From the IMG/VR virus record IMGVR_UViG_3300037804_000252, positions 24,700 to 88,699 of that record: a stretch of DNA of 64,000 bases; one strand, given 5' to 3'. A program made the translations under genes and the position numbers. The DNA is from a virus. The notes under the pieces are model-generated. The model searched no databases. It saw only the letters and a program-made list of their open reading frames with translations, and had not been told where the DNA came from. This document shows positions 422-32,957 of the stretch, piece by piece; position 1 is the stretch's first letter, and every line of letters begins with the position of its first letter.

Positions 422-449
422 AAATTATTCCTCTCTTTAGTATAGTATC

Positions 450-459
450 TATAAATATA
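450..459 (-). promoter_or_regulatory. Late-type promoter box TATATTTATA
   Basis: The coding strand reads TATATTTATA, 28 nt before the start codon at 421 and just after the capsid terminator. It is one of a recurring set of such boxes in this window. Confidence 0.5.
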
Positions 460-492
460 AAAAAATATAAGAATAGTGTTTTTCAAAAAGGC

Positions 493-523
493 AAAAAAAA
501 GAGGGGAACTTTCGAACCCCTCT
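493..523 (-). terminator. Rho-independent terminator after the major capsid gene
   Basis: On the minus strand AGAGGGG and CCCCTCT form a 7-bp GC-rich stem (500-506 with 517-523) around a 10-nt loop, followed directly by eight T residues. It sits about 25 nt past the capsid stop codon. It would stop the very abundant capsid transcript and insulate the next gene. Confidence 0.85.
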
Positions 524-548
524 AATTTAATTTAAGAACTAACTAAGA

Positions 549-2144: not shown

Positions 2145-2172
2145 TTTATTTTTCCTTTTTAATGTTAGTTAA

Positions 2173-17000: not shown

Positions 17001-17477
17001 ACTTATAGGATTAGATTGTTGGGGAGCGATGTAAACATATCCCTTATCTTCATATCCTTCGAAATCTAAGTTATCTTTATAAGGTGTAAAGAACTTACCC
17101 CCACTACCTAATCTACCAGCGTCTTTCTTACCTACAACAGTAATAAACGCAGTTGTATCTTTATCAAACTTCGTTAGTACCTCAGTTGGTACATAAGGAT
17201 TTTTTACTTGAAAAATTTTGTTTTTTGGAATCCCAAACATTTTGGTAATAATCATTACCTTTTCTTTGAAGTTGAATGGGGATTTATCATTATCGGTTTT
17301 ATTGGATGTACCGATATACACATTATTCTTTCCGAACTTTTTTACTAAGTGGGAATAGGTTGCGTAATGACCTTTATGAAAAGGTTGAAAACGACCAGCA
17401 TAGACTACAACTTTGTTGTCTACACTGCTCGTTTCTCCTAAAATACTTTCTATTAAGAATTGAGATAATTCGTTCAT
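14040..17477 (-). CDS. NMN adenylyltransferase-like / nucleic-acid ligase-like fusion
   Basis: The 1145-aa polypeptide joins two nucleotidyl-transfer domains. Residues ~20-200 form an HxGH-type nucleotidyltransferase, with GRFQPFHKGH at 28-37 and ISGTEVR at 158-164. Both are typical of NadM/NadR-type NMN adenylyltransferases that make NAD from NMN and ATP. Near residues 378-402 is a CxxC...CxxC zinc ribbon. The C-terminal part has a covalent nucleotidyltransferase signature: REKTDGQALAVSW with candidate AMP-lysine K786, RNKG downstream, NLEVIYP as a motif III-like strand, EGIVFVYGG near 1112 and a terminal KLTG. That pattern fits DNA or RNA ligases. The middle (~450-740) is unassigned. It lies upstream of the terminase genes and has its own late-type box. 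Confidence 0.85.
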   Translation of the reverse strand: MNELSQFLIESILGETSSVDNKVVVYAGRFQPFHKGHYATYSHLVKKFGKNNVYIGTSNKTDNDKSPFNFKEKVMIITKMFGIPKNKIFQVKNPYVPTEVLTKFDKDTTAFITVVGKKDAGRLGSGGKFFTPYKDNLDFEGYEDKGYVYIAPQQSNPISGTEVRNGLSAGSDEDKKDFFSKRAYPKFDKKIFDFITNTLNEEFSISEELLQNWLIIEGSDLIKEASQVLGSSEVDDGPNFLFPSYTTFDRVSQKRAEEIGYTVLSQIMSDDLTDIDPHPIYPDGPVKAVTPFPAGVAGKTTATNQKDFYGSDAYDKWFKHVTRISGLVGYSLVDFIELADERDESLRDLDKEKEEVTNVVGESYEKTENNDTSINCEKCDHQWEIETNDTQKYLCHNCGFDNQSKEYDLEKFEAWKKSNNINEDIKLPVNVGDTILTGRFKNKKTVVKTIGKDEHGMPTINGRKVVNFRILKEGIQVQLDEIPMADLQKIDQYADKQLNPVDVVLTDKHFFDRLTDPRNKKEISQAELIGFFKRLGKKKKDFLNFLNLYGQIVAKDNRTNLNIPFMKQANKVIAKTIMRKDDFKTPDPKYKFEGVNDFFYIKENKDTDSPFNDFAKGRGNGAGTISSNAKEKGGDSLLTHHHFDVKLPYYEKASNGKFDLEQAKEEFKETHEKINFNMKDIDFQEEMGRLEVLGELIIKYSSLKEYVMFKSNIQSTPSRKGLGDSELDELVPYALGGGITESLILEGGAYGHMNHPFDTEINLTFGQLKDIVNKALEGNLDLAREKTDGQALAVSWRDGRLVAARNKGHLKNKGEGALDINGVAMKFAGRGELEKAYNFAMKDLTKAISKLSEKQKDKIFKGGACFMNLEVIYPTSVNVIPYGQALLVFHGTMEYNEDGVAIGENQDAARMLAGMIKQVNADVQSAYTISGPPINQLPKSKDLRKLKGPYNSKISKLQSKFKLKDTDGIADYHQAFWMDFVNKKSPTKLDNRTLMGLVKRWAFYDKSFRLDKKNFSDEKTLEWAKGIDKNDHAKMAKDNIRPFEDIFLGIGADILSFMSSVLAANPDKAVRDMKKRLDKTIQDVKKSGDVKKINKLKLELQRLNAIGGTDKIVPNEGIVFVYGGKTFKLTGTFAPLNQILGLFYE

Positions 17478-17520: not shown

Positions 17521-17892
17521 TTATTCTTTTGGTAATTCAGTTGCTGGAATATCTTGATTCTTTAGTTGTTCCTTCATTTGTTCCAACACTGCAGGGTTAT
17601 ATGTAATAGTGCCCTTTTGTAAATCTAATTGTCCTCTTGGATATTCTTTCTCAAGTGCTGCAATCATCTTTCTCATTTCTTGATTGTCAGATTTGAAGTC
17701 ATTTTCAAGTTTATCTCTGTCAGAGTGTAATAATTCCAATTCTTCACCTAACTCCTTTTCACGGATGTATAATTGACCGAAACTATTTACTGCTTGATTT
17801 AGTTTATTATTTTGGTCTACAATCGGTTTAATAACACCTTCATCTAAGGTAACTGTTACTAATTCAATTTGTTGTTTTTCTTCGTTTGCCAT
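17521..17892 (-). CDS. Coiled-coil protein, paralogue of the one at 22474
   Basis: The 123-aa protein is helical and heptad-rich between residues ~25 and 85 (REKELGEELELLHSDRDKLE). It ends in a short conserved signature, KEYPRGQLDLQKGTITYNP. The gene at 22474-22746 ends with the matching KKYPNGQIDLEKGIIIF, so the two are paralogues. Together they bracket the four-gene sugar cassette. No enzymatic motif is present. A structural or scaffold role, for example oligomerisation of a virion or enzyme complex, is only a guess. It has its own late-type promoter box. Confidence 0.8.
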   Translation of the reverse strand: MANEEKQQIELVTVTLDEGVIKPIVDQNNKLNQAVNSFGQLYIREKELGEELELLHSDRDKLENDFKSDNQEMRKMIAALEKEYPRGQLDLQKGTITYNPAVLEQMKEQLKNQDIPATELPKE

Positions 17893-17947: not shown

Positions 17948-18703
17948 TTATAAGTTTTCGTAATCTATTGTTGTAACACCTCGTTTTTGTACAACTTGTG
18001 CTGAACATCGATTTCCGAATTGTATTGATTTTGGAATATCGTTAGTATCTAAGAACTCTTTCACAAATCCTGCTACAAATGTATCACCAGCCCCTGAGAT
18101 ATCCATAATCTCTACTTGTTCGGTTGGATATACTATATCATGATACATACATCCATCTTTATCTAATGTAACTATTAATTTTTCTACCAACCACCCATTG
18201 TCATTAATATATTCTATACTATTTTGAAATTCTGAACGGTTCTGTTTTATAAATCGTAAATTTTCACACCAATCCCCTAATTGTTTTTTCGTATCACAAA
18301 TTACATTTGGGTGTCTGAATGAGATAAAACTAATAACTTCTTCCGTTAAAAACCCTTTATTATAATCAGAGATTACAACCATATCATAATCAGAATAATT
18401 AATAGAAAGAAGTTGTGCATCGGTTATTCTATCTATTCGTTCTTCCTCATCTATTCTTAGTAGTAAACTGTTTGATGCTTCATGAATGTGTCTTGTCTTT
18501 TTTATAGTAGATTCATGTGTAATAAAGTCAACTTCTAATTTTAGTGATGTAAGATTACTCAATACATTCAATCCCATTCCACCATTACTAACTGTCCTTA
18601 AAGGAATAAATACAGGAGCAGGTCCTTCTGGTGATAACCTTGGTGTATCTCCATAAATGAAGATATCATCACATTGTTCTCCTATTAATAAAACCTTATT
18701 CAT
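17948..18703 (-). CDS. PfkB-type sugar kinase, HldE kinase-domain-like
   Basis: The 251-aa ribokinase-family protein ends with the family signature DISGAGDTFVAGF, whose Asp is the catalytic base and whose Gly-Ala-Gly forms the anion hole. An N-terminal GEQCDDIFIYGDTPRLSPEGPAPVF resembles the substrate loop of the HldE kinase domain (D-glycero-beta-D-manno-heptose 7-phosphate kinase). VVISDYNKGFLT is the corresponding DYxKG motif. It is shorter than the ~310-aa bacterial domain. Its ATG overlaps the stop of the next upstream gene, the HldE adenylyltransferase half, so the two would be made together. This supports phosphorylation of a heptose 7-phosphate as step one of ADP-heptose synthesis; another sugar is possible. 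Confidence 0.86.
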   Translation of the reverse strand: MNKVLLIGEQCDDIFIYGDTPRLSPEGPAPVFIPLRTVSNGGMGLNVLSNLTSLKLEVDFITHESTIKKTRHIHEASNSLLLRIDEEERIDRITDAQLLSINYSDYDMVVISDYNKGFLTEEVISFISFRHPNVICDTKKQLGDWCENLRFIKQNRSEFQNSIEYINDNGWLVEKLIVTLDKDGCMYHDIVYPTEQVEIMDISGAGDTFVAGFVKEFLDTNDIPKSIQFGNRCSAQVVQKRGVTTIDYENL

Positions 18704-19085
18704 TGTTTAATATTTTTGTTGTACTAAAATTATCTATTCTATTAAAATAAACAATTGATTTTGCGTATTGTCCACCTATTATAGATTTATTTTTATAATC
18801 AGAACCAATTACAAAGACATCTGGTTCAAATGTTTTTATTAATTGTTCTAGCATTTCAGATGAATCAAATATCACAACTCGTTTAACACCCTTTATTCTT
18901 TCTAAGTTGTACTTTCTTTCCTCTTGTGAGTGAAAGGGTCTATCATCACCTTTAAGTTCTTTAACTCGTTTATCAGAGTCTATTCCTACTACCAATAGTT
19001 CACCAAAACTAGCTGCGTGTTCTAATAATCTAAAATGAGCATGATGTAAGACATCAAAACAACCATTCACCCAAACTTTTTTCAT
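18696..19085 (-). CDS. Cytidylyltransferase-like, HldE adenylyltransferase-domain-like
   Basis: The 129-aa protein is a single nucleotidyltransferase domain. The HxGH-type loop is VNGCFDVLHHAHF, with Ala in place of the usual Gly of HxGH. Other HldE domain-II-like motifs are VVGIDSDKRVKELKGDDRP, VFVIGSDYKNKSIIGG and a C-terminal FSTTKIL. In bacteria this domain converts heptose 1-phosphate to ADP-heptose. The Gly to Ala change in the active-site loop is unusual. The gene overlaps both neighbours (4 and 8 nt), marking a translationally coupled operon with the kinase and the heptosyltransferase. A related specificity such as glycerol-3-phosphate cytidylyltransferase is less likely, given the partner kinase. 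Confidence 0.86.
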   Translation of the reverse strand: MKKVWVNGCFDVLHHAHFRLLEHAASFGELLVVGIDSDKRVKELKGDDRPFHSQEERKYNLERIKGVKRVVIFDSSEMLEQLIKTFEPDVFVIGSDYKNKSIIGGQYAKSIVYFNRIDNFSTTKILNNE

Positions 19086-20236
19086 AAGAACTTTTTTAAT
19101 TCAGTAATTACCATATTAGAAGTTATTGATTTAGTACACTCAAAATGTCTTTCTGTTCCTTTATGTTCTGGACACCAATTCCAATCTCCTGCATCTAACC
19201 TATGTTTATTAAAACACCCACCACATTTATCTTTAGGTGCACCGATTCTTATACAATCTTGCATTTCTGCCCATTTTTCTGAAAACCCACTGATTAAAAC
19301 TGTCTTTGTTCCTAATGCCCAACTTAACCAACTTAATCCACTACCAATACCAATAAATGCTTTAGATTTTTCCATTTGATTCATAACCGATTGTAAACTT
19401 CCCTCTGGGTGTTTTTTGATACCATCTGGGTGGTAGTTACCCATATATCCACTCTCTTCTCGTGAAAGTAATTTTACTTTATACCCTTTATCATTTAACC
19501 AATCTACCACATCTTGCCAACCAGTTGGATTATTCCAATATTTTGGTTGTGCAGTTCCATGAAAAGCAATCGTAATTAACTTATCATCTTTTTTAATTTT
19601 TTTATTTGAGATTTTAGGTTTTATTTCTACATAATCAAGTCCTAAAATATCAGACCCCATTTTTTGTAAAGGTTGTTCTAAAAAGTTATTTGGATTTAAT
19701 AAAGGGTTTGGATTATTATTATCAGTATAATAAATTCCTAACTTGTACATAGCATATAGGTTATGTACGGTTGAACCAGGATTTACAAACTTTAGTGTTG
19801 GGTAGTGTTCTTCAAATAAATAATTATGAAAAGTTGATACAATTAATTCACAATTATGCTTTTTTCTAAAAGTTTCTATATATGGAAACCATGCTAATGT
19901 ATCACCAAGTGCTTTTGAATCAAATGCAATAAATACTTTTTTATTTTTTAGATTAATTTTGTGAGTATGAACCAAATCATCACCATGGTAAATATCAATT
20001 TTCCAATCTATAAAATATTCATAATTTGATTTAGCCCAATGACCTGCCTTTAATTTGTTTTCGTATAAAGTTTGTCCATTTTTTTGATTTACAAATTTTA
20101 CTAAATATTCGTTATCACTATTACCAACAACCTCTACATATGGACCATTTACAAAATGAATGTTAAATGTATCACCATCTACACTTGGTAGTTGTTTAAT
20201 ATTATTTTTATTTATTTTTATATTATCGTAAATCAT
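19082..20236 (-). CDS. TibC-like protein O-heptosyltransferase (GT9-related)
   Basis: The 384-aa protein matches the bacterial autotransporter heptosyltransferase type. An N-terminal beta-rich region (~1-95) is followed by a GT-B fold with FIAFDSKALGDTLAWFPYIE, a sugar-nucleotide half with LITIAFHGTAQPKYW, and FIGIGSGLSWLSWALGTKTVL. The C-terminal cysteine finger has C338, C341, C355 and C367 in CGGCFNKHRL and NWCPEHKG context; TibC-family enzymes bind iron with four such cysteines. Those enzymes move heptose from ADP-heptose to Ser residues of surface adhesins. Beside HldE-like genes this gives a coherent pathway. The acceptor is unknown: a phage tail protein or a host surface protein are both conceivable. 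Confidence 0.85.
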   Translation of the reverse strand: MIYDNIKINKNNIKQLPSVDGDTFNIHFVNGPYVEVVGNSDNEYLVKFVNQKNGQTLYENKLKAGHWAKSNYEYFIDWKIDIYHGDDLVHTHKINLKNKKVFIAFDSKALGDTLAWFPYIETFRKKHNCELIVSTFHNYLFEEHYPTLKFVNPGSTVHNLYAMYKLGIYYTDNNNPNPLLNPNNFLEQPLQKMGSDILGLDYVEIKPKISNKKIKKDDKLITIAFHGTAQPKYWNNPTGWQDVVDWLNDKGYKVKLLSREESGYMGNYHPDGIKKHPEGSLQSVMNQMEKSKAFIGIGSGLSWLSWALGTKTVLISGFSEKWAEMQDCIRIGAPKDKCGGCFNKHRLDAGDWNWCPEHKGTERHFECTKSITSNMVITELKKFL

Positions 20237-22402
20237 TTATGACCATTTTTTATCGTATAAATCTAAAAGAGAAAAACCATCTGCTTGAAGTGAATATACT
20301 TTATTTGTAGTGTATCTTGGTCTTGGGTGTGTGTAAAAAACATGATTAAACCAAAGGTCACCAACATCCCACTCACAATCGTTTATTCTATCAACCCACC
20401 AACTTTTTTCTCTATTTGGTATCAGATAACAATGAGCAAGATTTTGATTATGACCTGTCTTTGTAAATAAATCATCTATCACTTCTTTATATTGAGACCC
20501 ATTATTTGCAAAAGATAAAAAAGGAACTTTATCTCTTTCTGAAATAAAACATGCCTTGTGTACAATATTAGTAAATTCTTCAAGTCCAACACTCAAGTAT
20601 CCATCTGCTTCAAATATTAATGTATAATCAAAATTTTCAGTATCTATTGTTTCTATTGCGGTTTTATGAGCAAGATAACAACCATAATGTCTACCAGTAA
20701 TCCAACCCAAACCAGCACCTGGATAAAGTTCACCTGGTTTATTATCTTTACTGAGATGGTCTGGTCTTCTACAAAATTCTTTTGGTGCGAATCCATCATA
20801 GACTTCATTTATAATTGGTTCGTAAACCATACCATATCTTTCTAATTGTTTTAATGAGTTATGTGATATAGTTTCTCGTAAGTCATCAGGTCTTGTTAAT
20901 AAGTGTTTAACTTGAATTCTTGGTTTTCTTCTCATATAAGAATGACCATCAATTGCAACTTGATTATAAAAAAACGTTTCAACTGATTTATTGACCTCAT
21001 TAAATACATTAAAATCATCACCTGCTATAATTCCACCTGGTTTTATTTTATGATACCATATATTCAGATTTTCTTCTGTTGATTGATAATCAGAATCTAT
21101 CATCATAAAATCAATAGAGTTATTTTCAAATAATTTTACTGAACTTTCTGAGGTGTCTTTTATAACATTAAATGAATCTTTGTTGTTTGAAATTAATGTG
21201 TTATCTATAAAATCACAATAAATGTCTCCATCAAAATCATTTACAATACTTTGTTTAGAGTTTTCTTTATATTCAGAAAAAGTATCAATAGTAGTAAAAT
21301 TAATATTTTTTTTAGATTTTTTAATTAACTCTGCCATTTTGTTTGATGACTTACCCATCCAAGAACCAAGTTCAACAAATGTAGAATTGTCATTAAACTC
21401 ATTGACCATTCTTTTGTACACCTTTTCATATGAAAACCAACCAGGAATTTCATTAAACTCTGGTTTAAGTATTTCTATAATTGTCTTTTTTGTTTTTAAT
21501 AAATCATCATCAATGTAAGTAACCAATGGATTATTATCGTAAGTATCTAAATAAGTCTCTAACTTTCTAAATATTGATTTTAATGAATACTCCAACGCTT
21601 CTTTAACTGATAGTGGGTTTAGTTCTAATGTTGAACTAAAATAAAATAAATCGGCTGCTTCGTAAAAACTACTAACATCATCTCGTTCTCCCCAAACAAT
21701 ACAATTATTTGGTTTATTATCCATTAGGGGTTTCCAATAATGTTCAAAGTTTCCTGCTTGGTTACCAATGAAATGAAATTTTATTTTATACTTTTCTAAC
21801 TGTCTTGCTATTCTAAAAATTTCACTTTGGTTTTTACCAGGTGTAAATAAACCAACCATGATTACATGCTTCCAATCATGCTCAAGATTTAATTCTTTTT
21901 TTGCTTTAGATTGATTTTTTTTCTTTTTTATAATTGGATATTCCCAAACATCGGTGTCTATATTCAAATGTTCAAATTGTCTTCTACTCCACTCAGACAC
22001 TAAAACATATTTGTCTGCATGAAATCTTATTTCATTTGGATTTGTTTTTGAACCATGTGTGGTTACAACTATTTTATAATCTCTTTTTTTATTATTAAAT
22101 ATTTTTTCTAAAGAGTTATGTGGAAGATAATGTTCTGGTATTTCTTGAAAATGAATAATGTCTGGAGTTTGACTTTCTATAATAGATTCTATTTCAGATT
22201 TGTCATCACCCAACGTATGTAATTTAACCAAACTATTTATTTGATTTTTTTGAACTACAAACGTATTTCCCGAATGATTGTTGACTTCTACTACTTGTAT
22301 ATGAAAATCATCTACAAAGTTTTCTATTTGTCTTAAAAGATATTGTGGCATCCCTCCCGTAGATAAATGGGGGGCAATATATAGTAACTTTTTTTTATCC
22401 AT
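20237..22402 (-). CDS. Glycosyltransferase-methyltransferase-glycosyltransferase fusion
   Basis: The 721-aa protein has three apparent domains. Residues 1-320 are a GT-B glycosyltransferase (LLYIAPHLSTGGMPQYLLRQ, VLVSEWSRRQF, VIMVGLFTPGKNQ, and an acidic LELNPLSVKEALEY sugar-binding motif). Residues ~325-500 form a class I methyltransferase resembling the Methyltransf_24 group (FVELGSWMGKSS as the SAM loop, FMMIDSDYQS, GGIIAGDDF). The last ~200 residues contain GCYLAHKTAIE and DYTLIFEADGY, similar to GT25-type transferases, with an ExD in place of the common EDD. It heads the heptose operon behind a Bacteroidota-type promoter and a palindromic operator. It probably extends or caps a glycan that includes heptose. 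Confidence 0.85.
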   Translation of the reverse strand: MDKKKLLYIAPHLSTGGMPQYLLRQIENFVDDFHIQVVEVNNHSGNTFVVQKNQINSLVKLHTLGDDKSEIESIIESQTPDIIHFQEIPEHYLPHNSLEKIFNNKKRDYKIVVTTHGSKTNPNEIRFHADKYVLVSEWSRRQFEHLNIDTDVWEYPIIKKKKNQSKAKKELNLEHDWKHVIMVGLFTPGKNQSEIFRIARQLEKYKIKFHFIGNQAGNFEHYWKPLMDNKPNNCIVWGERDDVSSFYEAADLFYFSSTLELNPLSVKEALEYSLKSIFRKLETYLDTYDNNPLVTYIDDDLLKTKKTIIEILKPEFNEIPGWFSYEKVYKRMVNEFNDNSTFVELGSWMGKSSNKMAELIKKSKKNINFTTIDTFSEYKENSKQSIVNDFDGDIYCDFIDNTLISNNKDSFNVIKDTSESSVKLFENNSIDFMMIDSDYQSTEENLNIWYHKIKPGGIIAGDDFNVFNEVNKSVETFFYNQVAIDGHSYMRRKPRIQVKHLLTRPDDLRETISHNSLKQLERYGMVYEPIINEVYDGFAPKEFCRRPDHLSKDNKPGELYPGAGLGWITGRHYGCYLAHKTAIETIDTENFDYTLIFEADGYLSVGLEEFTNIVHKACFISERDKVPFLSFANNGSQYKEVIDDLFTKTGHNQNLAHCYLIPNREKSWWVDRINDCEWDVGDLWFNHVFYTHPRPRYTTNKVYSLQADGFSLLDLYDKKWS

Positions 22403-22473: not shown

Positions 22474-22746
22474 TTAGAAAATAATAATTCCTTTTTCTAA
22501 ATCAATTTGTCCATTAGGATATTTTTTATCAATCTCACCTAATTCAAGATTCATTTCGTTGATTGACTTATCTAATCTTAATCCAAATTCATCTTCCTTT
22601 GAATCCAACTCATCAAGACTTTTTTCAAATTGTCTTCTCTGAACTGCTAATTGACCTAGTGCAATTACAAGATTGTTTTGTTCATCTTGAATTCCTTTTA
22701 GTTTTTCAACTAATGATTGTTCTAATTGTTCTGTTTTTTGTTCCAT
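22474..22746 (-). CDS. Coiled-coil protein, paralogue of the one at 17521
   Basis: The 90-aa protein is almost entirely a heptad-patterned helix, with QLEQSLVEKLKGIQDEQNNL followed by RRQFEKSLDELDSKEDEFGL. It ends in KKYPNGQIDLEKGIIIF, which matches the end of the protein at 17521-17892. It sits between the tail chaperone and the sugar cassette, and overlaps no neighbour. An oligomerising structural role is possible. The function is not recognised. Confidence 0.78.
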   Translation of the reverse strand: MEQKTEQLEQSLVEKLKGIQDEQNNLVIALGQLAVQRRQFEKSLDELDSKEDEFGLRLDKSINEMNLELGEIDKKYPNGQIDLEKGIIIF

Positions 22747-22803: not shown

Positions 22804-23196
22804 TTATTCTGGTTTTGTTGGGAGTGTATATGGTGGAGTTTGTGAAGTTATATCTCTCAAGTCTTGTCTATATTGAACCCACTCATCTAATTTAGAACCA
22901 GTAATAGGAGAATGAGGAAGTACTACCCAATCACTATCATTCAATAATGAGTTTCGTGTATTTCTAATACCAAGTAATTGTTCAGCGTTTATTTCATCGG
23001 TAGTAAATGGTACTTCGGTGTGAACACCATCAATTACTCTGTATCTAATATTACTTCTAGCTTCTATCCATTCCTCTTTAGTTAGTTCTATATTTGGAGT
23101 TGGTATAGAATCATAGTCAGTCCATATATCAGTTGGATGATAACTTTTGTAATCACCACTACCAGTATCATAATGTGCGAAATATTGTATTGCCAT
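22804..23196 (-). CDS. Tail fibre assembly chaperone (Phage_tail_APC-like)
   Basis: The 130-aa protein has a C-terminal half of the kind seen in small proteins encoded directly after tail fibre genes: RNTRNSLLNDSDWVVLPHSP, then YRQDLRDIT and a Pro-rich tail PPYTLPTKPE. That R-x2-R-x2-LL-x3-DW pattern is typical of the Phage_tail_APC family, which helps fibres fold or trimerise. The N-terminal part (MAIQYFAHYDTGSGDYKSYH) is variable. It lies 14 nt downstream of the 3162-aa tail protein gene and is its likely partner. Confidence 0.83.
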   Translation of the reverse strand: MAIQYFAHYDTGSGDYKSYHPTDIWTDYDSIPTPNIELTKEEWIEARSNIRYRVIDGVHTEVPFTTDEINAEQLLGIRNTRNSLLNDSDWVVLPHSPITGSKLDEWVQYRQDLRDITSQTPPYTLPTKPE

Positions 23197-23210: not shown

Positions 23211-26200
23211 TTAATGTCCTATTGCTATCCAAAACCCAGATGTTCCATCTAATATGATATCCATTCCATTCCTATCCACATTAGATACATGATTAAATCC
23301 ACTTCCACCTGCTGAGTTTCTTAGAGTAGAACAAACAGCTGCACTTATTGAGGTTGGGAATTCAGTTGGAAATCCAACATTCTTTATACCATAAGAAGTA
23401 CCTTGATTAACACTTCCCCATTGTATTATTACACCACCAGGAAGTTTTACATAACTATCTTTATTATTAACGACTGTTGTTTGACCCGTGGTTCCTGTTA
23501 TAGAATTGACAAGTGAAACTGCCAGTCCACTAATATCTATACCATTTAGATATTTCCATCTATTTCCATCTTTACCTAATGCAAATGGTCTATAAACTCC
23601 ACCAGTTGCACTTATACTATTAGTACTAGCTACATCAGGGTTCATTGGTAATATGTTACCCATTGCAAATATTGCTTGTGCATTAGTATCATCGTAGGCT
23701 GAAGCTGCTGGGTCAACAGCAAATGCTCTTGATGTAATTTCTAAATGACCATCACCTACTTCTAATAATTTTGTGGCAGTATCAATCAATTCTCTTCTAA
23801 AAATTCTTACAAATCTATCGTTATTAGATACAACTTGTATTCCTGCTGGTCTTATTTCTACAAAGTTATTTTCTGCTTGAACTGTAATATCCTGGTCCCA
23901 ACCTCCATAACTATAACCACCATTACTAAAAAACTCTTCAGTATAATTTGATGTAGAGGTATTTGTTTTGAATGTTGTAGTATGAACGTTCCAAGGTCCA
24001 GCCGTAAACCCACCACCTGATGTAACAGAAAAACTCTGTCCAGAAGCAGATGCAACTTCCCATCTATATCTAAGTCTAGCAGGTCCACTTTCTTGAATAG
24101 AGATACTTTTTTCAACCGTTTCTGAAGATGAAGATTTATTACCTCCACCTGAAGATGCTCCGTCAATTATTTGATATACCCATTCTAAAGTATCCCCACC
24201 GATGATGTTGTGAGAAATAATACCATTTGAAAGATAGTTTACATAGTGAGGTACACTAAAGGTTATTACCTCTTCTTCTTTTTCAATTATTTCAACTTTG
24301 CTTATTTTAACTGCTTTTATAGAGTCACCATCTTTAATACGAACATGGTAACCATCTTCTTCTAGTAAATCAGTATGATTTTTATAAACATCATATAAAT
24401 TAGTTACTTTTACCTTTCCACTGTTTAATTGTGTACCAAATAACCAAAAACAGTGATTTTTGGAAACTTCAATCTCTTTTCCATCAGTAGTTGTTACTTT
24501 ATAGACTTTAGATACATCTCTTTTATGAATTTTAGATAATTTAGCAGATACCCATTTTTTATTTATATCATCCCATGCTAAAATCGTATCATTGATGGTA
24601 ATATATTTTGCTAACTTCGTAGTACCATCCGATAAAGTTATCTTAGTATCACCCACTACCGAAAGCTGACCACCACCACCAAATGTTTCCTCTGCCTGAT
24701 AATTGGAATATGAATTTGTTGGACCGTAAGTGTAAAGAGTTTTTAGTAATGTCTCTCCAATTACCACATCATCATTATTAATAACTTCTAGATAAACCGA
24801 ACCTCTTCGTTGTTGAGGAGATGGGTATGCTTGTATCCCCCCATGTATCTCACCTGAAAAGACCGGGTCATTGGAAGGTTGAGCAATTGTTGGATTTTGC
24901 GGTGATGTCATTCCAGTTTGTTTTAACTGAAGATATGGTATGGTAATATCCTTAAATGTTTTTACACCCGCTGAGATTGTTATAGGAGTGTTTGATGGTA
25001 TTGAAGTTCCTGTTGTTTTCGCAAAAGTTTTACCATTACTAGTAGAGGTTGCGGATATATTACTTCGAAGACCTCCAACAGAGGTTGCTGCGGAACCAGA
25101 CCATGTAAAACTTGTGTTTAGTGCTGCTGTTGATGAGAAATCCGAAACCGAATCTATTCGTATTTGTTCTCTACTTGATACCGGAATCAACTCTGATGGG
25201 TTCGAACCTGCTTCATATAATTGAACAGGTGCCCCATAACCAGTTGCATTTTCATTATAATAATAGAAATTGGTTGACGGTCTAGATGCTCCTAATACTG
25301 GTGAATTACCAAAAAGGTCAAAACTTTCAGATGGAAATATCGTAAGATATGCACCCGCATTACCTGGTAATGCACTTGAGGTTTGGATTAAGAATGGTTG
25401 GTTTTCAATGTTACTTGTATCTAAAGTTGTTGGTCTATTATACCTACCACCATATGTACCAATACCATCTTCTCTAACTGAGAAACTAAATAACTGATTT
25501 AACATTGATGGGTGAGATAAATCAAAGTAATAACTACCACCATTATCTGTTGCAGGGGCCTGTTGCTCCAGTCGGGTTTGGGTTGGAGTAAATGGTAAAA
25601 ACTCTGACATGATTAAGTTAAGAGAAGCTTTGGATTCAGTGACATCAGAACTAAGACCTATGGCGAACGCATTATTCTCAACAAATACAGACATACTTCT
25701 AGGTGCACTTGTATCCACTTCTTCATATGACTGACTAAATATTTTTATACTAGGTGGTATCCCTATGTCAGCATCACCTGGATTTAATATAATTTCATTA
25801 CCATCATCTCTAAGTGTATTTGTTGTCTCATCAATAATCCATTCACCAATTTTACCAGAACTTGCTTGAACCGTACCTGCTATATTTGCGTCTGATGCCG
25901 AAACAATTCCAAGTATATCAACAGTAAATCTATATTCATTTGTATTTGGTCCAGTTTCTCCTATGAATAGTGATGGTCCTATAATTGCAGAACCAGTACC
26001 AGTAAATGATGCATCTGATAATGTAATTGCTCCATCTTTATATCTTAAAAATCTAGAACCAGTAGACATTGACAAAACAGGTAAACTTCCCGTGTATCCT
26101 AAGTATATTCCATCTTCTCCAAAATCTTGAACTACCTGCCCAATAGATATAAATGGATTTTCGTTATTGTTACTTGCGTCAGCATTTAATGCAATTGTTG

Positions 26201-29200
26201 GAGTTCCTGTATTATCTGCACCAATGTTAATTGTTTGGTCTACATAAACTTCTTGAGCTAGAAGAATATCAGTTGCAACTGAACTAAACTGAGCTCCAAA
26301 TGATGTCCAATCACTACCACCAACTGGATTATCCCAAGTATCTAATCCATTTTTATTTGAATTATCAACTATATAGTAATTACCATCACTACCCTCTACA
26401 ACATCAGTTCTCTCAGTAGATTGAAAGTAAAGTTTAGTTGAATCATAAACTCCTCTGAATACTACTCCTGCTCCAGGTGCTCCAGGTGCACCAGTTGCTC
26501 CAGAGGAACCAGCAGTTCCAGCAGTTCCCGAAGTACCATCGACACCAGCATTTGCTCGTGTAAATGATTGTTTCTTAACAAGTCTAACAATATCACCATT
26601 TGCTTTTTTATGTTTTAGTACATGATTGATAAATCCATTGGCTGTACTAAAGTTTGTTAAATTTCCTATTGTACCCGTTGTAGTACCACCTCCACCAATT
26701 GTTGGAAATTGTCCACCTGTAAATCCTTTATATAATGATGCTTCAATTGTGAATTCAGAATTATTCAATGCTGAAGGATTACTTGTACGAATTTGATAAT
26801 CACTATCACCATCAAATGCACAAAAATCAAATAAGATACCAGATGCACCTTGTCCACTAATTTCGTATTCATCTGAAAGTACTACTTCCCAATTTGTACC
26901 ACTTGTATTATTGATAGCTTTAACTTTTGCGTAATCGAATCCACTTTGTACATCAACTCCCTCGGATTGAAAACCACCATCAACATTCACATCATGTACC
27001 CAAAGAATTCCTAACTCCGCAAGAATTTGCATCAGTTGAAGCATCGATGCTTGTCCTGAACTTATATCACTTTCACTAAATGTAATTACCGCATCTCCTT
27101 GACCTTCGTTTCCAGGACCCTGTATTTCAAAATTAACATTAATATCAATATTTTGGTCTGGGTTTTTGAAAGTTAATGGAGTTGTTCCTTCATATGCATT
27201 TATTTCAGTTCCACTATCTGAAAAGTTGGTTATAGTTCCAGTAGAATTTGCTTGGAATGTGTGAGATTCATTTGATAATACGGATGTGATTGCATTAGAA
27301 CCATCTGTGAGTCTAACAACAGTTATTTCATCAGATTTACCACCAGCAGTAGCAGTAACAGTAACTGCGGTGTTTGTACCAAAATCTCCTTTTCTCAAAT
27401 AAACAGTATCACCAGTTGTGGTTGAACTACCACCAGTTGATGCATCATAAAGAGTTACCGATGGTGAAGTTGTCCAAGATGTTGCAGTTCCTATATTTTC
27501 TTTATTAGCAGTAAACTCAATAAAATCAGGAGTTAGTACACCATTTGTTCCTTCTACAAAAGATTGACCATCTGTGGTTAATCTTAATGTTTTTGCTGCC
27601 AAATTGGATTCTTGCCAATATGTTGTGTATGAAGAACCTACACCAGGTTCATCGTTACCAACACCCTTATCATGAACTAAGATACATTCCCAAGTTATAC
27701 CATTATTAGATGTTGTATCTCCTACTATAAAAGAAAACCCACTTACGAGAGTACTCCATGCTGCAAGAATTCTGCTTTCTACCTCACCTTCAGGTGTTTG
27801 TCTAAGTGCACCTCTGATAGTTAGTGTTTCACCATTCCATTCTAACGATTTATACTTTCCACTAACGGTGTTACTTTTCATTGACATCTTTGGAAGGATA
27901 CTTGTTCCCGCATCCCCTGCCGAATTGGACATACCCATCCAAATTCCTTGTTCTTGGAATCCGATAGTACCCGTTTGTCCTACTGCAATATAAGGTTCAT
28001 CAGTACCACCTGCAATTGTAATTTGTGGATTGACTGCGTATGAAGTTGGTGGTGTACCAACATTAAGTGTATTTTTTACAAATGACTCTTCAAATATTGC
28101 TAACTTTGCTGCTACGAAGAATTCTTCTTGACCAAGTGATACCCAATAATCAGTATTTACTTCTCTACCACCACTACCATCATCTCTTGTTGGTGCTTGA
28201 GCGTCTCCTGCACCAGGTGATGAATCATTAGGAGTTATAAAAGAAGAACCACTGTCTTTTGTTGCGTAATAGGTATCATATGGTTCATTACCACTTTCAG
28301 AATAAAGTACAGAATCTCTTCGTTTAGATTCTTTGTTATAGATATATTCTATTGAACCAGTCCAAGGCCCTCTAAACACAAGACCAGGACCCACATCACC
28401 CTCTTTTGTTGATGCTATTGATTGTGATAAGAAATAAGTTGCTCTACCATTTTCAATATCAACTTTGTAAATTACAGTTGCAGTTGGATTGTCTTGTGGT
28501 AAAGTCCAATCAGTTAATGGTCCTACTGACGCAGGGTTTCCTTGTGGGAAACTTGGTTGAGTAATGTATGTATCTAAGTTAAATATAGATGAAGAAAACT
28601 CACCAAGTGTACCAATAGGGTCACCTACATTATCAAGTTGTTGACTAGAGTAGTTCTGAACATTAGTTAGTTCTTGAGTACCCTTAAATGCTTTTATCTG
28701 AGTACCAGTTGTACTTAAATCAAGTTCTCCATCAACCTTAACTGTAATTGTTGGTGATGGGTTAGTTAAAAATACCTGATAATTATTTGCTCCACTTTGT
28801 ACACCCGATATAGTTACTTCCTTACTTGCGAATACTGGTCCACTTATTGAACCATCTCGTAAATCAACTCTATACGTTGTAGTTGTACCAGGTGCAGGTA
28901 AATCACCAGACCCAACTTCAAACTGATTGTTTGTACCAGGAAAAGTAACTGCGAATCCTTCTTGAAAGAATTCATAATATGCTTGAGATGATGTTATATT
29001 AAATGGTGTTGCTGTAAGAAATATAGATGTTGGTTCTAAAGATGATGCGTCTACTGGTGATGTTATAATACCATCCTTATCATAATTTGCTACCTCGGTT
29101 GTGGTTGATAGTTCAACACTTCTTGCTCGTATACCTTCTTTATTTTTTGAAAATAGTTGTTTTCTATTTACGGTTTGAGACCCACTTAATATTCCACTTG

Positions 29201-32200
29201 TAATTGAGAATGGATATATTTTAATTTGGTAATCAACACTACCACTATCAGTTAAAAAGTTATTAAAGTCTCTAAAATGTAGTGTATCATCTAAATTTCT
29301 TTCAGTTGAATTATCATTTGAAGATGAGAATGTACCAATTGATATTTGGTTTGGAGAAAGAGACGCACTAAATGTACCAGGTAAAACTAAAGAAGATGTA
29401 CTAAACTCCATGTAAGTATCACCCTGTTTAACTCTCAATGTTGTATTTGCAGAACTAAAGTCAACTATTCCTCCGTTTTCTTCTGCATCTATTGTTACTG
29501 ACACTGGGTCTAATTCTATATTGATTGCATCTGCACCTTCTAGTGTTTTCTTAAACTGTTGAACAAAACTTTGTGTATAAAATGAACCCGTAAAGTATGG
29601 ATGGATTTCCAAATCATATGTAACACTTGCTGTTAGGTCTGTCATTCTTCGGAAACCACTTAAAGACATTGTTGCGTCTCCAAGAATTTCATCAAAAGTT
29701 GTATACTCAATCCCTAAAGGAGTTATTGATGATGTAGTAAATGTACCAGGTTTTTTTGTATCATCAAATATAAGTGGTAATCTACCTTGTGTTACAGTAA
29801 TTGTTGTATCTGCATTTGAATAGTTAAATACATTTCCTCGTTGGTCTGCATTAAGAACTACTGGTCTTGGGTCTATATCAACTATAATAGAATCTACACC
29901 AGGTAATCCATCAGGTACAGAAAAAAATGTTTTATCTACTGAAATCGATGCTGATGTGATATCCTCAGTATATGTAAATGTTGTAGTTAATTGTTTTCGT
30001 TCTATTGGTACGAAATATGAAACTTCCTCACCAGGTCTACCACTATCTACAATGTTGTTGTCTTTATCAGTTACTACAATATCGATTCTTCTATCAAACG
30101 AATCAGTAACGTAGAACATATAATAAAATGGTTCTTTTGTCTCAGGGTCAACCGACATTGATGGGTAGATATCTAAAGTACCACTAATTGGACTTGAGTT
30201 AGTTCCTCTTAAATAGAAAGAACCAGTAACTCTACCAATCTCTGGAGTGAAAACTCTTTCATCTCTCGGTTTTATTCCAAATTGTTCTGCATCAAAACTA
30301 ATAAATCCACTTGCAAGACCATCTTGTAAATCATTTAGAATAATAGAAGTTAATATAGATTCAGAAGTAGGTCCATCCATTAAATAAACCGTAAGTTCTT
30401 TATCTATTGAATCTCTGTTAAAAGTTGCGTTATAATCTATTTCACCACTACCAGTTGTACCCGCAGTTAAACCTCTTATAAATCCACTTGTCTGTACTTC
30501 AGATAATAAAAAATATGATGATGATACATCAGATGTGATTGGGTCAATTGATGAGGATAATACCCTAAGTTTGGCATCTGAAAATCCTGTCTGAGGTAAT
30601 CCATCCTTTAACTCAATTCTATTTATACCATCAATACGATATGCTTGTATTTCTAAATCTTTATCAGAATTATTTTTTATCGATGTTCCTCTAAATGGTG
30701 TTATTTCAAAATTTACACCACCCTTTCCATCTTGAACCCGTGTAATAACAACTTCATCTGATATACCTTCTGCGAATCCAGTAAATCTAATATATTGAAC
30801 TACGATATCACTTCTTGAACCAGTAAAATCTGCAACATTAAGAACAGGTGTTCTTGTATCTATATTTCTTAATAATCCAGGATATTGTCCTCCTGCGTAT
30901 TCTGACGCAGATAGGAAGTTCCCAAACTCATCGTATGCACCAGATGTAAATGATATGGAACCTGTCAATAAACTTGTTTCAATATCAAATATTATTGATG
31001 TTGGTGGCATTGGATTTGCTGGAAGCGATGCCGAATCAAATGTAAAATATAAATTAGATGGAGTTATTTCAAGTTCTTTATCAAATAAGTTTAAGTTACC
31101 ACCATCAAACCTTTTTGTTGCTTCTACTAAAACAGGAATGTAGTTGTTATTGATATCATAAAATTCAAACCTATAATCAAATGTTTCAACTGCTAATGTC
31201 TTTGGAACATTTTGAATAAATGTTATGACATCAGGTGAAAATGATGTTTCTTGAGATGCTTTCAGACTTAAATTGTTTATATACCAATTAGAGCCATTTA
31301 CATCAAAGTATAGTTGTGCAGAATCAAATTCATCTGCTATAAAATTTTCATTAAAGTTTGTTTTTTGAAAAAGTCCATTAGAAGAAGGTATCTCGATTAT
31401 CGTTTGAGACTTTGCTACATTATTTAGAGAACCACTCAAAAACACAGTTAGTTTTTCTCCTGCTACTAAACTTCCAGAAAGTCTTGTATTAAAGTCAAGT
31501 GAGTATTCAATATCATTTTCAATATCTAAACTTTTTGTTGTAAAAAATAAATTATCACCTGTTGAGTTTAACCTTGCTGAATTATATAAAAAGTTTTGGT
31601 TAAGGGAAACACTTAAATCATTAGATGATGTTACCCAATACTCTTCTATTATAGGTTCAGTAAAAAACCCGTAAAGTTCTTCTGGTGCTGAAAAGGTTTC
31701 AATGTCTCGTAGTAACTCATTTGATTCTAATTGTATTTCTTGTACAAATTCGAAATCGGTTACATTGGATTGAGACCTTCTAAATATTTTTACTCTCGCA
31801 GCATCTCCTACGAAAGTTTTCATATCAGTTATTTTTATTTTTGCGAAAGAACCAGTTAATGCAGTTGCTAAGTCATTAATACCCTCTAAATATGGGAACG
31901 TTACTGAATAGTTTTCATTGGTAAGTGATTTTACCAAACCATTTTCGGAATATGGTGGAGTTACTATTAACTCAGTTTCATTTACAACTTCTTCAACTAT
32001 TGGATTATAGTTTATATTATCAAAATTTATAGGGTCTCCTTCAATAGAGCCTGTCCAATTATTTCCTGTTTTAATTTTTAATCTATATGAAGTTGGTAAA
32101 CTAAAATTAGATAAATTTGTATTTTCAATCGGAACTAATGGAATACCATCAACAGTACCAGTTTGAGTAACTAATCTTGAATTATTGCTAAAAATTGGTT

Positions 32201-32699
32201 TGTTTATCTCATCAATAGTAACTTCGGGTCTTCTATAAAACCTAACTCTATCTTCATTCGATATATTTTTATTTACTTGAAAAGTTCTTTCCCACTTAAC
32301 ATTATAAACACCCTCCCATTGGTCTGGTACAACTCTTTTAACTCCCTCATCATCATACTCCTTTAGTTCACCTAAAACAGTAATCTTACCCAATCCAATT
32401 GGAGTATCATTATAAATGTAAACAGCTATTAGTTTAGATATACCTTCGTAGTATTCCGGAATACCATTACCTGGTTCAAAGTAGATTGGGTCTCCATTAA
32501 CATCTAAAAGTTCAATCTTTATTTCGGTTGATTCTTTTAGATATTCTGAACCCTCTATAAGAAATCCATTCTTACCACCAGTAAACGTATCCTTAAATTC
32601 GGTTATTCTAAAGTAATCTGAATTTGGATTTTCATCATTTATAAATGTTTGAAATGATGATAAATTTTGAAGTGGTGAATATTTTTTAATTCTTGCCAT
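23211..32699 (-). CDS. Giant tail / receptor-binding protein with Hint domain
   Basis: At 3162 aa this is the largest product in the window. The N-terminal two-thirds is a series of Ig-like beta domains with recurring DG-x-x-G linkers and related strands (for example TTITVTQGRLPL and TTLRVKQGDTYM). A collagen-like Gly-x-y stretch occurs near residues 2054-2078. Residues 2680-2831 are an intein-like Hint domain. The C-terminus, VKLPGGVIIQWGSVNQGTS through a final FWIAIGH, resembles receptor-binding tips of tail fibres. An APC-type chaperone gene follows. The protein probably forms the long adhesive device of the tail. Its Ser/Thr-rich composition makes it a possible acceptor for the nearby heptosyltransferase; that is inference. 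Confidence 0.88.
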   Translation of the reverse strand: MARIKKYSPLQNLSSFQTFINDENPNSDYFRITEFKDTFTGGKNGFLIEGSEYLKESTEIKIELLDVNGDPIYFEPGNGIPEYYEGISKLIAVYIYNDTPIGLGKITVLGELKEYDDEGVKRVVPDQWEGVYNVKWERTFQVNKNISNEDRVRFYRRPEVTIDEINKPIFSNNSRLVTQTGTVDGIPLVPIENTNLSNFSLPTSYRLKIKTGNNWTGSIEGDPINFDNINYNPIVEEVVNETELIVTPPYSENGLVKSLTNENYSVTFPYLEGINDLATALTGSFAKIKITDMKTFVGDAARVKIFRRSQSNVTDFEFVQEIQLESNELLRDIETFSAPEELYGFFTEPIIEEYWVTSSNDLSVSLNQNFLYNSARLNSTGDNLFFTTKSLDIENDIEYSLDFNTRLSGSLVAGEKLTVFLSGSLNNVAKSQTIIEIPSSNGLFQKTNFNENFIADEFDSAQLYFDVNGSNWYINNLSLKASQETSFSPDVITFIQNVPKTLAVETFDYRFEFYDINNNYIPVLVEATKRFDGGNLNLFDKELEITPSNLYFTFDSASLPANPMPPTSIIFDIETSLLTGSISFTSGAYDEFGNFLSASEYAGGQYPGLLRNIDTRTPVLNVADFTGSRSDIVVQYIRFTGFAEGISDEVVITRVQDGKGGVNFEITPFRGTSIKNNSDKDLEIQAYRIDGINRIELKDGLPQTGFSDAKLRVLSSSIDPITSDVSSSYFLLSEVQTSGFIRGLTAGTTGSGEIDYNATFNRDSIDKELTVYLMDGPTSESILTSIILNDLQDGLASGFISFDAEQFGIKPRDERVFTPEIGRVTGSFYLRGTNSSPISGTLDIYPSMSVDPETKEPFYYMFYVTDSFDRRIDIVVTDKDNNIVDSGRPGEEVSYFVPIERKQLTTTFTYTEDITSASISVDKTFFSVPDGLPGVDSIIVDIDPRPVVLNADQRGNVFNYSNADTTITVTQGRLPLIFDDTKKPGTFTTSSITPLGIEYTTFDEILGDATMSLSGFRRMTDLTASVTYDLEIHPYFTGSFYTQSFVQQFKKTLEGADAINIELDPVSVTIDAEENGGIVDFSSANTTLRVKQGDTYMEFSTSSLVLPGTFSASLSPNQISIGTFSSSNDNSTERNLDDTLHFRDFNNFLTDSGSVDYQIKIYPFSITSGILSGSQTVNRKQLFSKNKEGIRARSVELSTTTEVANYDKDGIITSPVDASSLEPTSIFLTATPFNITSSQAYYEFFQEGFAVTFPGTNNQFEVGSGDLPAPGTTTTYRVDLRDGSISGPVFASKEVTISGVQSGANNYQVFLTNPSPTITVKVDGELDLSTTGTQIKAFKGTQELTNVQNYSSQQLDNVGDPIGTLGEFSSSIFNLDTYITQPSFPQGNPASVGPLTDWTLPQDNPTATVIYKVDIENGRATYFLSQSIASTKEGDVGPGLVFRGPWTGSIEYIYNKESKRRDSVLYSESGNEPYDTYYATKDSGSSFITPNDSSPGAGDAQAPTRDDGSGGREVNTDYWVSLGQEEFFVAAKLAIFEESFVKNTLNVGTPPTSYAVNPQITIAGGTDEPYIAVGQTGTIGFQEQGIWMGMSNSAGDAGTSILPKMSMKSNTVSGKYKSLEWNGETLTIRGALRQTPEGEVESRILAAWSTLVSGFSFIVGDTTSNNGITWECILVHDKGVGNDEPGVGSSYTTYWQESNLAAKTLRLTTDGQSFVEGTNGVLTPDFIEFTANKENIGTATSWTTSPSVTLYDASTGGSSTTTGDTVYLRKGDFGTNTAVTVTATAGGKSDEITVVRLTDGSNAITSVLSNESHTFQANSTGTITNFSDSGTEINAYEGTTPLTFKNPDQNIDINVNFEIQGPGNEGQGDAVITFSESDISSGQASMLQLMQILAELGILWVHDVNVDGGFQSEGVDVQSGFDYAKVKAINNTSGTNWEVVLSDEYEISGQGASGILFDFCAFDGDSDYQIRTSNPSALNNSEFTIEASLYKGFTGGQFPTIGGGGTTTGTIGNLTNFSTANGFINHVLKHKKANGDIVRLVKKQSFTRANAGVDGTSGTAGTAGSSGATGAPGAPGAGVVFRGVYDSTKLYFQSTERTDVVEGSDGNYYIVDNSNKNGLDTWDNPVGGSDWTSFGAQFSSVATDILLAQEVYVDQTINIGADNTGTPTIALNADASNNNENPFISIGQVVQDFGEDGIYLGYTGSLPVLSMSTGSRFLRYKDGAITLSDASFTGTGSAIIGPSLFIGETGPNTNEYRFTVDILGIVSASDANIAGTVQASSGKIGEWIIDETTNTLRDDGNEIILNPGDADIGIPPSIKIFSQSYEEVDTSAPRSMSVFVENNAFAIGLSSDVTESKASLNLIMSEFLPFTPTQTRLEQQAPATDNGGSYYFDLSHPSMLNQLFSFSVREDGIGTYGGRYNRPTTLDTSNIENQPFLIQTSSALPGNAGAYLTIFPSESFDLFGNSPVLGASRPSTNFYYYNENATGYGAPVQLYEAGSNPSELIPVSSREQIRIDSVSDFSSTAALNTSFTWSGSAATSVGGLRSNISATSTSNGKTFAKTTGTSIPSNTPITISAGVKTFKDITIPYLQLKQTGMTSPQNPTIAQPSNDPVFSGEIHGGIQAYPSPQQRRGSVYLEVINNDDVVIGETLLKTLYTYGPTNSYSNYQAEETFGGGGQLSVVGDTKITLSDGTTKLAKYITINDTILAWDDINKKWVSAKLSKIHKRDVSKVYKVTTTDGKEIEVSKNHCFWLFGTQLNSGKVKVTNLYDVYKNHTDLLEEDGYHVRIKDGDSIKAVKISKVEIIEKEEEVITFSVPHYVNYLSNGIISHNIIGGDTLEWVYQIIDGASSGGGNKSSSSETVEKSISIQESGPARLRYRWEVASASGQSFSVTSGGGFTAGPWNVHTTTFKTNTSTSNYTEEFFSNGGYSYGGWDQDITVQAENNFVEIRPAGIQVVSNNDRFVRIFRRELIDTATKLLEVGDGHLEITSRAFAVDPAASAYDDTNAQAIFAMGNILPMNPDVASTNSISATGGVYRPFALGKDGNRWKYLNGIDISGLAVSLVNSITGTTGQTTVVNNKDSYVKLPGGVIIQWGSVNQGTSYGIKNVGFPTEFPTSISAAVCSTLRNSAGGSGFNHVSNVDRNGMDIILDGTSGFWIAIGH
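24207..24662 (-). other. Hint (intein-like) domain inside the giant tail protein
   Basis: Residues 2680-2831 of the host protein are about 152 aa, the size of a mini-intein without homing endonuclease. Block A is SVVGDTKITLSDGTTKLAKY with a leading Ser. Block B is VTTTDGKEIEVSKNHCFWL. The end is VNYLSNGIISHN, with the terminal His-Asn of inteins. The residue after HN is Ile, not Cys, Ser or Thr, so ordinary splicing lacks its C-extein nucleophile. Self-cleavage, as in bacterial intein-like domains, or a purely structural remnant are the alternatives. Confidence 0.8.
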
Positions 32700-32789: not shown

Positions 32790-32957
32790 ATGAATAAAAA
32801 ATATGCAATGTTACAAATTGATGCTGAGGTTCATCAATTATTAAAGTCTTTTTGTAAAGAAAAGGGATATAAGATGAATGGATTAGTAGAGTCTCTTATA
32901 AAAGAAAAAGTATCACCGAAACAAACTCAACCACAAAACATTTTAAGGTCTAACTAA
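32790..32957 (+). CDS. Ribbon-helix-helix DNA-binding regulator (Arc/CopG type)
   Basis: This 55-aa gene is the only convincing plus-strand gene. The N-terminus KYAMLQIDAEVH fits the DNA-contacting beta strand of an RHH fold. It is followed by helix one (HQLLKSFCKEKGY) and helix two (MNGLVESLIKEKV), then a short polar tail. The size and the strand-helix-helix pattern match Arc/CopG/MetJ-like dimers, which repress transcription. It sits behind three helically phased CTAAAGA sites and a 16-bp palindrome. It is divergent from the giant tail gene and its last 8 nt overlap the end of the UDP-glucose dehydrogenase gene. Likely targets are its own promoter, the tail gene and perhaps the sugar operon. 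Confidence 0.85.
   Translation: MNKKYAMLQIDAEVHQLLKSFCKEKGYKMNGLVESLIKEKVSPKQTQPQNILRSN

What the first reader, a model, noticed from the sequence alone, without database searches (positions are those of the whole stretch)
17948..22402. Phage-encoded ADP-heptose synthesis and O-heptosyltransfer operon
Seen: four overlapping or abutting genes encode an HldE-like kinase, an HldE-like nucleotidyltransferase, a heptosyltransferase with a CxxC...C...C finger, and a multi-domain glycosyltransferase. Known: in bacteria HldE makes ADP-heptose, and TibC-type enzymes put heptose on Ser of autotransporters. Inferred: the phage makes its own ADP-heptose and glycosylates a protein, perhaps its Ser/Thr-rich 3162-aa tail protein, or alters the host surface after infection.
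Basis: partly seen in the sequence, partly recalled or inferred. Interest (0 to 1): 0.87.

Follow-up and report, generated by a model that had tools for sequence, protein, structure and literature searches.

The report
Phage cassette sugar-coating collagen-like tail fibres
A water-dwelling T4-like phage carries a late gene cassette that probably activates a seven-carbon sugar (heptose) and attaches it, with further sugars, to serines and threonines in its own proteins; the best-supported target is collagen-like Gly-Thr-Ser repeats in its giant tail fibres, a pairing also found next to the same enzyme in bacteria.

Summary
All four genes are real and placed as described. The 384-aa protein is a strong homologue of TibC-type protein heptosyltransferases (TIGR04414, 273 bits, cut-off 200): catalytic Asp, donor-binding Thr/Lys/Trp and the four-Cys iron finger are kept. 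Upstream is GT4 + methyltransferase + GT25-fold; downstream are a split, shortened HldE-like kinase and nucleotidyltransferase, both below the curated HldE cut-offs. No GmhA or GmhB was found in phage records up to 385 kb, so the host must supply those steps. The cassette sits among tail/terminase genes and is conserved across this phage group; the kinase/nucleotidyltransferase pair is optional. New here: this heptosyltransferase branch, outside the TibC clade, is genomically tied to Thr/Ser-rich collagen-like (Gly-Thr/Ser-Ser)n proteins: 16/19 bacterial loci against 0/20 random regions; 44-116 bp away in all six Methylococcales cases but absent beside four TibC-type enzymes; 19/50 against 1/44 phage contigs. 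The window's own record ends inside such a tract, and a sister phage carries 3929- and 3994-aa proteins full of them. Proposed: O-heptosylation, then extension, of collagen-like tail-fibre tracts. Viral ADP-heptose synthesis is already published; the heptosyltransferase-collagen link appears unreported in the library searched. Acceptor and activity are inferred.

The parts
17948..18703 (-). Short HldE-domain-I-like (PfkB) heptose-7-phosphate kinase homologue, 251 aa
   Evidence: TIGR02198 1.2e-33 but 117 bits against cut-off 345; phrog_8133; RLSPEGPAPVF, SDYNKG and GAGDT motifs conserved in viral set; PDB HldA 4e84 by profile
18696..19085 (-). HldE-domain-II-like heptose-1-phosphate nucleotidyltransferase homologue, 129 aa
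   Evidence: TIGR02199 2.3e-31, 109 bits against cut-off 181.5; phrog_7878; STTR5-type Arg
19082..20236 (-). TibC-like protein O-heptosyltransferase (BAHT), 384 aa; D112, T228, K232, W303, C338/C341/C355/C367
   Evidence: TIGR04414 273 bits, cut-off 200; TibC 4rb4/4rap 4e-49; residue mapping
20237..22402 (-). GT4 - methyltransferase_24 - GT25-fold protein, 721 aa
   Evidence: Pfam; AF2 model pLDDT 83.5; N-terminal GT4 fold, BshA best
21443..22402 (-). GT4 domain (aa 1-320)
21011..21376 (-). Methyltransf_24 domain (aa 343-464), absent in some relatives (L012, L014, L038)
20279..20941 (-). GT25-fold domain (aa 488-708); closest solved folds are collagen galactosyltransferase COLGALT1 and mimivirus R655
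   Evidence: model pLDDT 85.9; Foldseek 3e-8, TMq 0.61
17521..17892 (-). Small coiled-coil protein flanking the cassette, similar to the one at 22474
22474..22746 (-). Second small coiled-coil protein flanking the cassette
22804..23196 (-). Tail fibre assembly chaperone (Phage_tail_APC), marks the structural-gene setting
23211..32699 (-). 3162-aa tail protein, minor candidate acceptor
26466..26546 (-). Short collagen-like tract GVDGTSGTAGTAGSSGATGAPGAPGAG (aa 2052-2078) in the tail protein; a longer tract lies outside the window at the left end of the record (G000:C1 about 1-170)

Best explanation
The cassette is a late-expressed protein O-glycosylation module. Host enzymes make D-glycero-manno-heptose phosphates; the phage kinase and nucleotidyltransferase push them to nucleotide-activated heptose (ADP-, possibly CDP/UDP-heptose). 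The TibC-like enzyme moves heptose onto Ser/Thr hydroxyls of the phage's own virion proteins, most likely the (Gly-Thr/Ser-Ser)n collagen-like tracts of its giant tail fibres. The GT4-methyltransferase-GT25 protein then extends and caps the heptose. The coat would stiffen, hydrate or shield the fibres. Shown: gene content, conservation, catalytic residues, genomic association with the tracts. Inferred: activity, late expression (from gene position), donor nucleotide, acceptor, order of transfer, benefit.
For: Heptosyltransferase: TIGR04414 above cut-off; TibC 4e-49; D110/T226/K230/W305 equivalents and four Cys invariant in 73 viral sequences (residues from PMC4358343). Setting: between tail and terminase genes in all clade loci that reach it. 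Acceptor: Thr/Ser GXY tract in 16/19 bacterial loci of this branch against 0/20 random regions, p 2.6e-8; all six viral-type Methylococcales loci have it 44-116 bp away and four TibC-type loci have none; the single collagen-like hit in a 5-Mb genome is the neighbour gene; TIGR04414 and collagen co-occur in 9/9 against 50/142 Methylococcales genomes, p 1.4e-4; phage contigs picked for GTS tracts carry the enzyme in 19/50 against 1/44 picked for GPx tracts, p 1e-5. The window's own record and sister phage G011 carry tracts. The GT25-fold domain is closest to COLGALT1. TibC-type enzymes form one separate clade, 100/97.
Against: No biochemistry. Association is not proof of an enzyme-substrate pair. 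31/50 GTS contigs show no heptosyltransferase (many are fragments). The GPx control differs in composition and probably taxonomy. In the window's close clade the tract-bearing proteins are not adjacent to the cassette, most cassette-side tail proteins have few or no strict triplets, and records G003, G008, G284 and G285 show no tract. A small TerL-chosen set gave only 2/4 against 1/17. TibC's Arg286 is Val here, and kinase and NT fall below HldE cut-offs. GT25 folds also make bacterial surface sugars. The tracts have not been shown to fold as collagen.
Confidence: 0.55

Rival explanations
1. Host-surface remodelling: the genes alter the host's LPS or capsule after infection, blocking superinfection.
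For: HldE-like genes in cyanophages P-SSM2 and S-SM2 lie in clusters with LPS-type sugar genes; GT4 and GT9 families commonly build surface glycans; a UDP-sugar dehydrogenase lies nearby.
Against: The transferase scores as the protein-acting TIGR04414 (273 bits), far above LPS heptosyltransferase I (27 bits); the cassette sits in the late structural block, and its bacterial relatives neighbour collagen-like genes.
Confidence: 0.13
2. Classical BAHT action on a beta-stranded tail protein (the neighbouring 3162-aa protein) or on a host autotransporter.
For: Adjacent large Ser/Thr-rich tail protein; family named for autotransporter targets.
Against: No SLS target repeat (TIGR04415) in the three large window proteins scanned; the branch lies outside the TibC clade, and it is the TibC-type loci, not this branch, that lack collagen-like neighbours.
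Confidence: 0.17
3. The transferase uses another activated sugar or other nucleotide-heptose, and the HldE-like pair serves a different purpose such as a second pathway.
For: Arg286 adenine contact lost in 72/73 viral homologues; kinase/NT absent in 17 and partial in 4 of 50 loci; STTR5-type residue; no GmhA/GmhB.
Against: Heptose-contact Trp305 and Lys230 equivalents invariant; kinase/NT sit directly downstream with overlapping genes when present.
Confidence: 0.12

Closest known systems
TibC / AAH bacterial autotransporter heptosyltransferases (BAHT; PMC4358343, PDB 4RAP/4RB4)
   Same: Family score above cut-off; catalytic Asp, Thr226, Lys230, Trp305, four-Cys iron finger and hydrophobic thumb positions
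   Different: Arg286 to Val, Pro300 to Gly; separate branch; phage-encoded, often fused or paired with GT4; genomic partner is collagen-like, not an autotransporter
Viral NDP-heptose biosynthetic enzymes (Tang et al. 2024, as reported in PMC11461863) and cyanophage P-SSM2 / S-SM2 clusters
   Same: Split kinase and nucleotidyltransferase; phosphatase absent from viruses
   Different: Here tied to a protein heptosyltransferase; the short phosphoheptose isomerase annotated in P-SSM2 has no GmhA-domain counterpart found here
Collagen glycosylation by COLGALT1 and mimivirus collagen-modifying enzymes
   Same: GT25-like fold; collagen-like acceptor proposed
   Different: Those systems modify hydroxylysine with galactose or glucose; here Ser/Thr and heptose are proposed
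BclA-type glycosylated bacterial collagen-like proteins (review PMC8968730)
   Same: Sugars on Gly-X-Y tracts rich in Thr
   Different: Spore proteins, not phage fibres; no heptose mentioned in the review
Microcystis phage Mel-JY01 (PP395634)
   Same: Related terminase (59%) and gene neighbourhood; heptosyltransferase domain; GTS tract upstream
   Different: GT4 and heptosyltransferase fused in one 1226-aa protein annotated as FkbM; no kinase or NT next to it

Membership tests
BAHT / TIGR04414 (TibC-type) | Score above curated equivalog cut-off | tested here: met
   273.3 bits against 200
BAHT / TIGR04414 (TibC-type) | Catalytic Asp110 and donor residues Thr226, Lys230, Trp305 | tested here: met
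   D112, T228, K232, W303; invariant in 73 viral homologues
BAHT / TIGR04414 (TibC-type) | Adenine contact Arg286 | tested here: not met
   Val284; R in 1/73 viral and 7/19 bacterial homologues
BAHT / TIGR04414 (TibC-type) | Four-Cys iron finger | tested here: met
   C338, C341, C355, C367
BAHT / TIGR04414 (TibC-type) | Partner is a strand-loop-strand autotransporter | tested here: not met
   No TIGR04415 in three large window proteins; bacterial relatives neighbour GXY proteins. It works like a BAHT but is filed as a sister branch
BAHT / TIGR04414 (TibC-type) | Dodecamer and heptosyl transfer to protein | not testable with these tools
   Needs protein work
HldE domain I (heptose-7-P kinase) | Score above equivalog cut-off TIGR02198 (345) | tested here: not met
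   116.7 bits; about 60 residues shorter than the model
HldE domain I (heptose-7-P kinase) | RxSPExPxPV substrate motif and GAGD catalytic motif | tested here: met
   Conserved in alignment A2 and aligned to HldA 4e84
HldE domain II (heptose-1-P nucleotidyltransferase) | Score above equivalog cut-off TIGR02199 (181.5) | tested here: not met
   108.6 bits, still the best family
Complete ADP-heptose pathway | GmhA and GmhB encoded with HldE parts | tested here: not met
   None in 12 phage records each; records may be fragments
GT25 (collagen galactosyltransferase/LgtB) | GT25 sequence family match | tested here: not met
   No PF01755 hit
GT25 (collagen galactosyltransferase/LgtB) | GT25-like fold | tested here: met
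   COLGALT1 top fold match, TMq 0.61, 13% identity

The most novel reading that the evidence does not exclude
A whole branch of TibC-like enzymes, spread over aquatic phages and several bacterial phyla, O-heptosylates Ser/Thr in collagen-like (Gly-Thr/Ser-Ser)n proteins: a glycosylation system for prokaryotic and viral collagens, extended by GT4, methyltransferase and GT25-fold domains.
Probability: 0.5. Interest if true: 0.85.

Novelty: new variant of a known kind. Interest (0 to 1): 0.72.

Why it matters
Viral heptose synthesis has been reported without a known use; a dedicated protein heptosyltransferase gives it one. The genomic tie to Thr/Ser-rich collagen-like proteins points to a substrate class for an enzyme family thought to serve autotransporters, and suggests that giant phage tail fibres are glycoproteins. 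Both are directly testable in laboratory E. coli with a synthetic repeat.

Tried and rejected
Looked for SLS target repeats in the 3162-, 1043- and 1208-aa proteins: none. Looked for GmhA, GmhB and HldD: no GmhA or GmhB; only sub-cut-off sugar epimerases for HldD. Considered LPS heptosyltransferase I: only 27 bits. Considered glycerol-3-phosphate cytidylyltransferase for the NT: weaker in NCBIfam (74 against 109 bits) although it is among the best PDB matches. Searched literature for phage BAHT, collagen plus heptose, and viral hldE: no report of a phage BAHT or collagen heptosylation found in the held library. A TerL-chosen test set proved too small and fragmentary to decide. My regex also matched ORFs on strands that conflict with annotation in Mel-JY01, so that locus is weaker evidence. 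One self-comparison of the kinase profile was uninformative.

Full report
OBSERVATION. The four minus-strand ORFs lie at 17948-22402 as described, overlapping by 8 and 4 bp or abutting. The window is bases 24700-88699 of an 88,699-bp IMG/VR virus record with T4-like portal, terminase, capsid and baseplate genes. The nearest cultured relatives by terminase are Microcystis phage Mel-JY01 and Flavobacterium phage immuto (both about 59%); the host is unknown.

THE ENZYMES. The 384-aa protein passes the curated cut-off of TIGR04414 (273 against 200 bits) and matches TibC at 4e-49. Residues shown by mutagenesis in TibC (PMC4358343) were mapped on 73 viral and 19 bacterial homologues: Asp110, Lys230, Trp305 and the four iron-finger Cys are invariant, Thr226 is kept in all viral sequences, and the thumb is Tyr-Met instead of Phe-Val. 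Two differ: Arg286, the adenine contact, is Val in 62/73 viral sequences, and Pro300, the stereoselectivity residue, is mostly Gly. The 721-aa protein is GT4, methyltransferase 24 and a C-terminal domain whose predicted fold (pLDDT 86) is closest to collagen galactosyltransferase COLGALT1 and mimivirus R655; this is fold-level similarity at 11-17% identity and does not fix the acceptor.

THE DONOR GENES. Kinase and NT are best matched by HldE domains I and II but fall below those cut-offs. The kinase is a shortened form shared with cyanophages (phrog_8133). P-SSM2 and S-SM2 carry comparable split genes, and functional viral heptose enzymes, without the phosphatase, are already published (Tang et al. 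2024 as summarised in PMC11461863). In 50 distinct cassette loci, 29 have NT and kinase, 4 NT only, 17 neither, and none kinase alone. No GmhA or GmhB was found in 12 phage records each, up to 385 kb. So the phage boosts two of four steps and depends on the host. The NT has Arg at the STTR5 position (Lys or Arg in all 14 examined), reported to allow CDP/UDP use, which fits the loss of the adenine contact; ADP-heptose is therefore likely but not certain.

CONSERVATION. At least 569 viral stretches encode relatives. In the window's clade the order tail protein - small coiled coil - GT4/MT/GT25 - heptosyltransferase - (NT - kinase) - small coiled coil - NMNAT-like - terminase - portal is constant; all 24 terminase-chosen loci that reach the spot have the heptosyltransferase, NT and kinase. 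In distant phages the enzyme is fused to GT4 or methyltransferase domains. The pair heptosyltransferase plus GT4 is the core; donor synthesis is the accessory.

THE ACCEPTOR LEAD. Bacterial relatives were fetched by enzyme motif only. In 16 of 19 loci an ORF in the locus, usually the neighbour, carries a Thr/Ser-rich Gly-X-Y tract (GTSGTSGSS...), with PF01391 collagen hits in those scanned; 20 random 17-kb regions from four Methylococcales genomes gave none (Fisher p 2.6e-8). In Methylobacter luteus the only collagen-like hit in 5 Mb is the gene next door. In 151 Methylococcales genomes all nine with TIGR04414 above cut-off have collagen-like hits, against 50 of 142 others (p 1.4e-4). The six genomes with the viral-type enzyme (304-327 bits) have the tract ORF 44-116 bp away, whereas the four TibC-type enzymes (654-663 bits) have none within the 1-6 kb or more of flank read on each side. 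TibC types form one clade (100/97).

IN PHAGES. Of 50 contigs chosen only for a GTS-tract DNA pattern, 19 encode the enzyme; of 44 chosen for a GPx collagen pattern, one does (p 1e-5). The control differs in composition and probably in taxonomy, so this is supportive, not decisive. The window's own record ends inside a GTS/GSS tract in a 2313-aa open frame (record positions about 1-170, outside the window), a typical place for an assembly break, and seven pattern matches were counted in it. Sister phage G011, with the same cassette, has 3929- and 3994-aa open frames with hundreds of such triplets. The 3162-aa neighbour has a single nine-triplet tract at 26466-26546. Some clade records show no tract.

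MECHANISM. Most likely: host-made heptose phosphate is activated by the phage pair, the TibC-like enzyme puts heptose on Ser/Thr of tail-fibre tracts, and the GT4/MT/GT25 protein extends it. Enzyme identity is well supported; protein heptosylation is likely (about 0.75); the collagen-like acceptor about 0.55. It works like a BAHT, but because the autotransporter partner and Arg286 tests were not met it is filed as a sister branch rather than as a TibC orthologue.

NOVELTY. Phage heptose genes are known; BAHTs are known; glycosylated prokaryotic collagens are known. The combination, and the enzyme-to-collagen genomic link, were not found in the papers searched, which exclude most subscription journals and preprints.

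Noticed in passing
window 24195-24668 (-), inside the 3162-aa tail protein, aa about 2680-2835: Intein/Hint-like module (TIGR01445 above cut-off) ending in SHN but followed by Ile and without an obvious Cys start, so splicing is doubtful; also present in the tail protein of L010.
   Followed up: partly
window 61509-63184 (-): A PAS-domain histidine kinase with membrane-like N-terminus next to a response-regulator receiver: an apparent phage-encoded two-component pair.
   Followed up: partly
window 17521-17892 and 22474-22746 (-): Two homologous small coiled-coil genes flank the cassette in nearly all clade loci, as if duplicated around an inserted module; could be partners of the fibres or enzymes.
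   Followed up: partly
window 14040-17477 (-): 1145-aa protein with an N-terminal nucleotidyltransferase (NMNAT-like) domain, always between cassette and terminase, length varying from about 780 to 1490 aa among complete-looking relatives.
   Followed up: no
window 63524-63961 (-): 2OG-Fe(II) oxygenase (PF13640); a prolyl-hydroxylase-like role on collagen-like tracts is an untested thought.
   Followed up: no
window 33775-36906 (-): Single 1043-aa ORF joining an SbcD-like phosphoesterase to an SbcC/Rad50-like ATPase.
   Followed up: no
window 32950-33771 (-): UDP-glucose/GDP-mannose dehydrogenase-like protein that appears to lack the C-terminal domain.
   Followed up: no
L002 (PP395634.1) 1-3052: Deposited minus-strand genes of Mel-JY01 overlap a long plus-strand frame rich in GTS repeats; the annotation may be on the wrong strand.
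   Followed up: no
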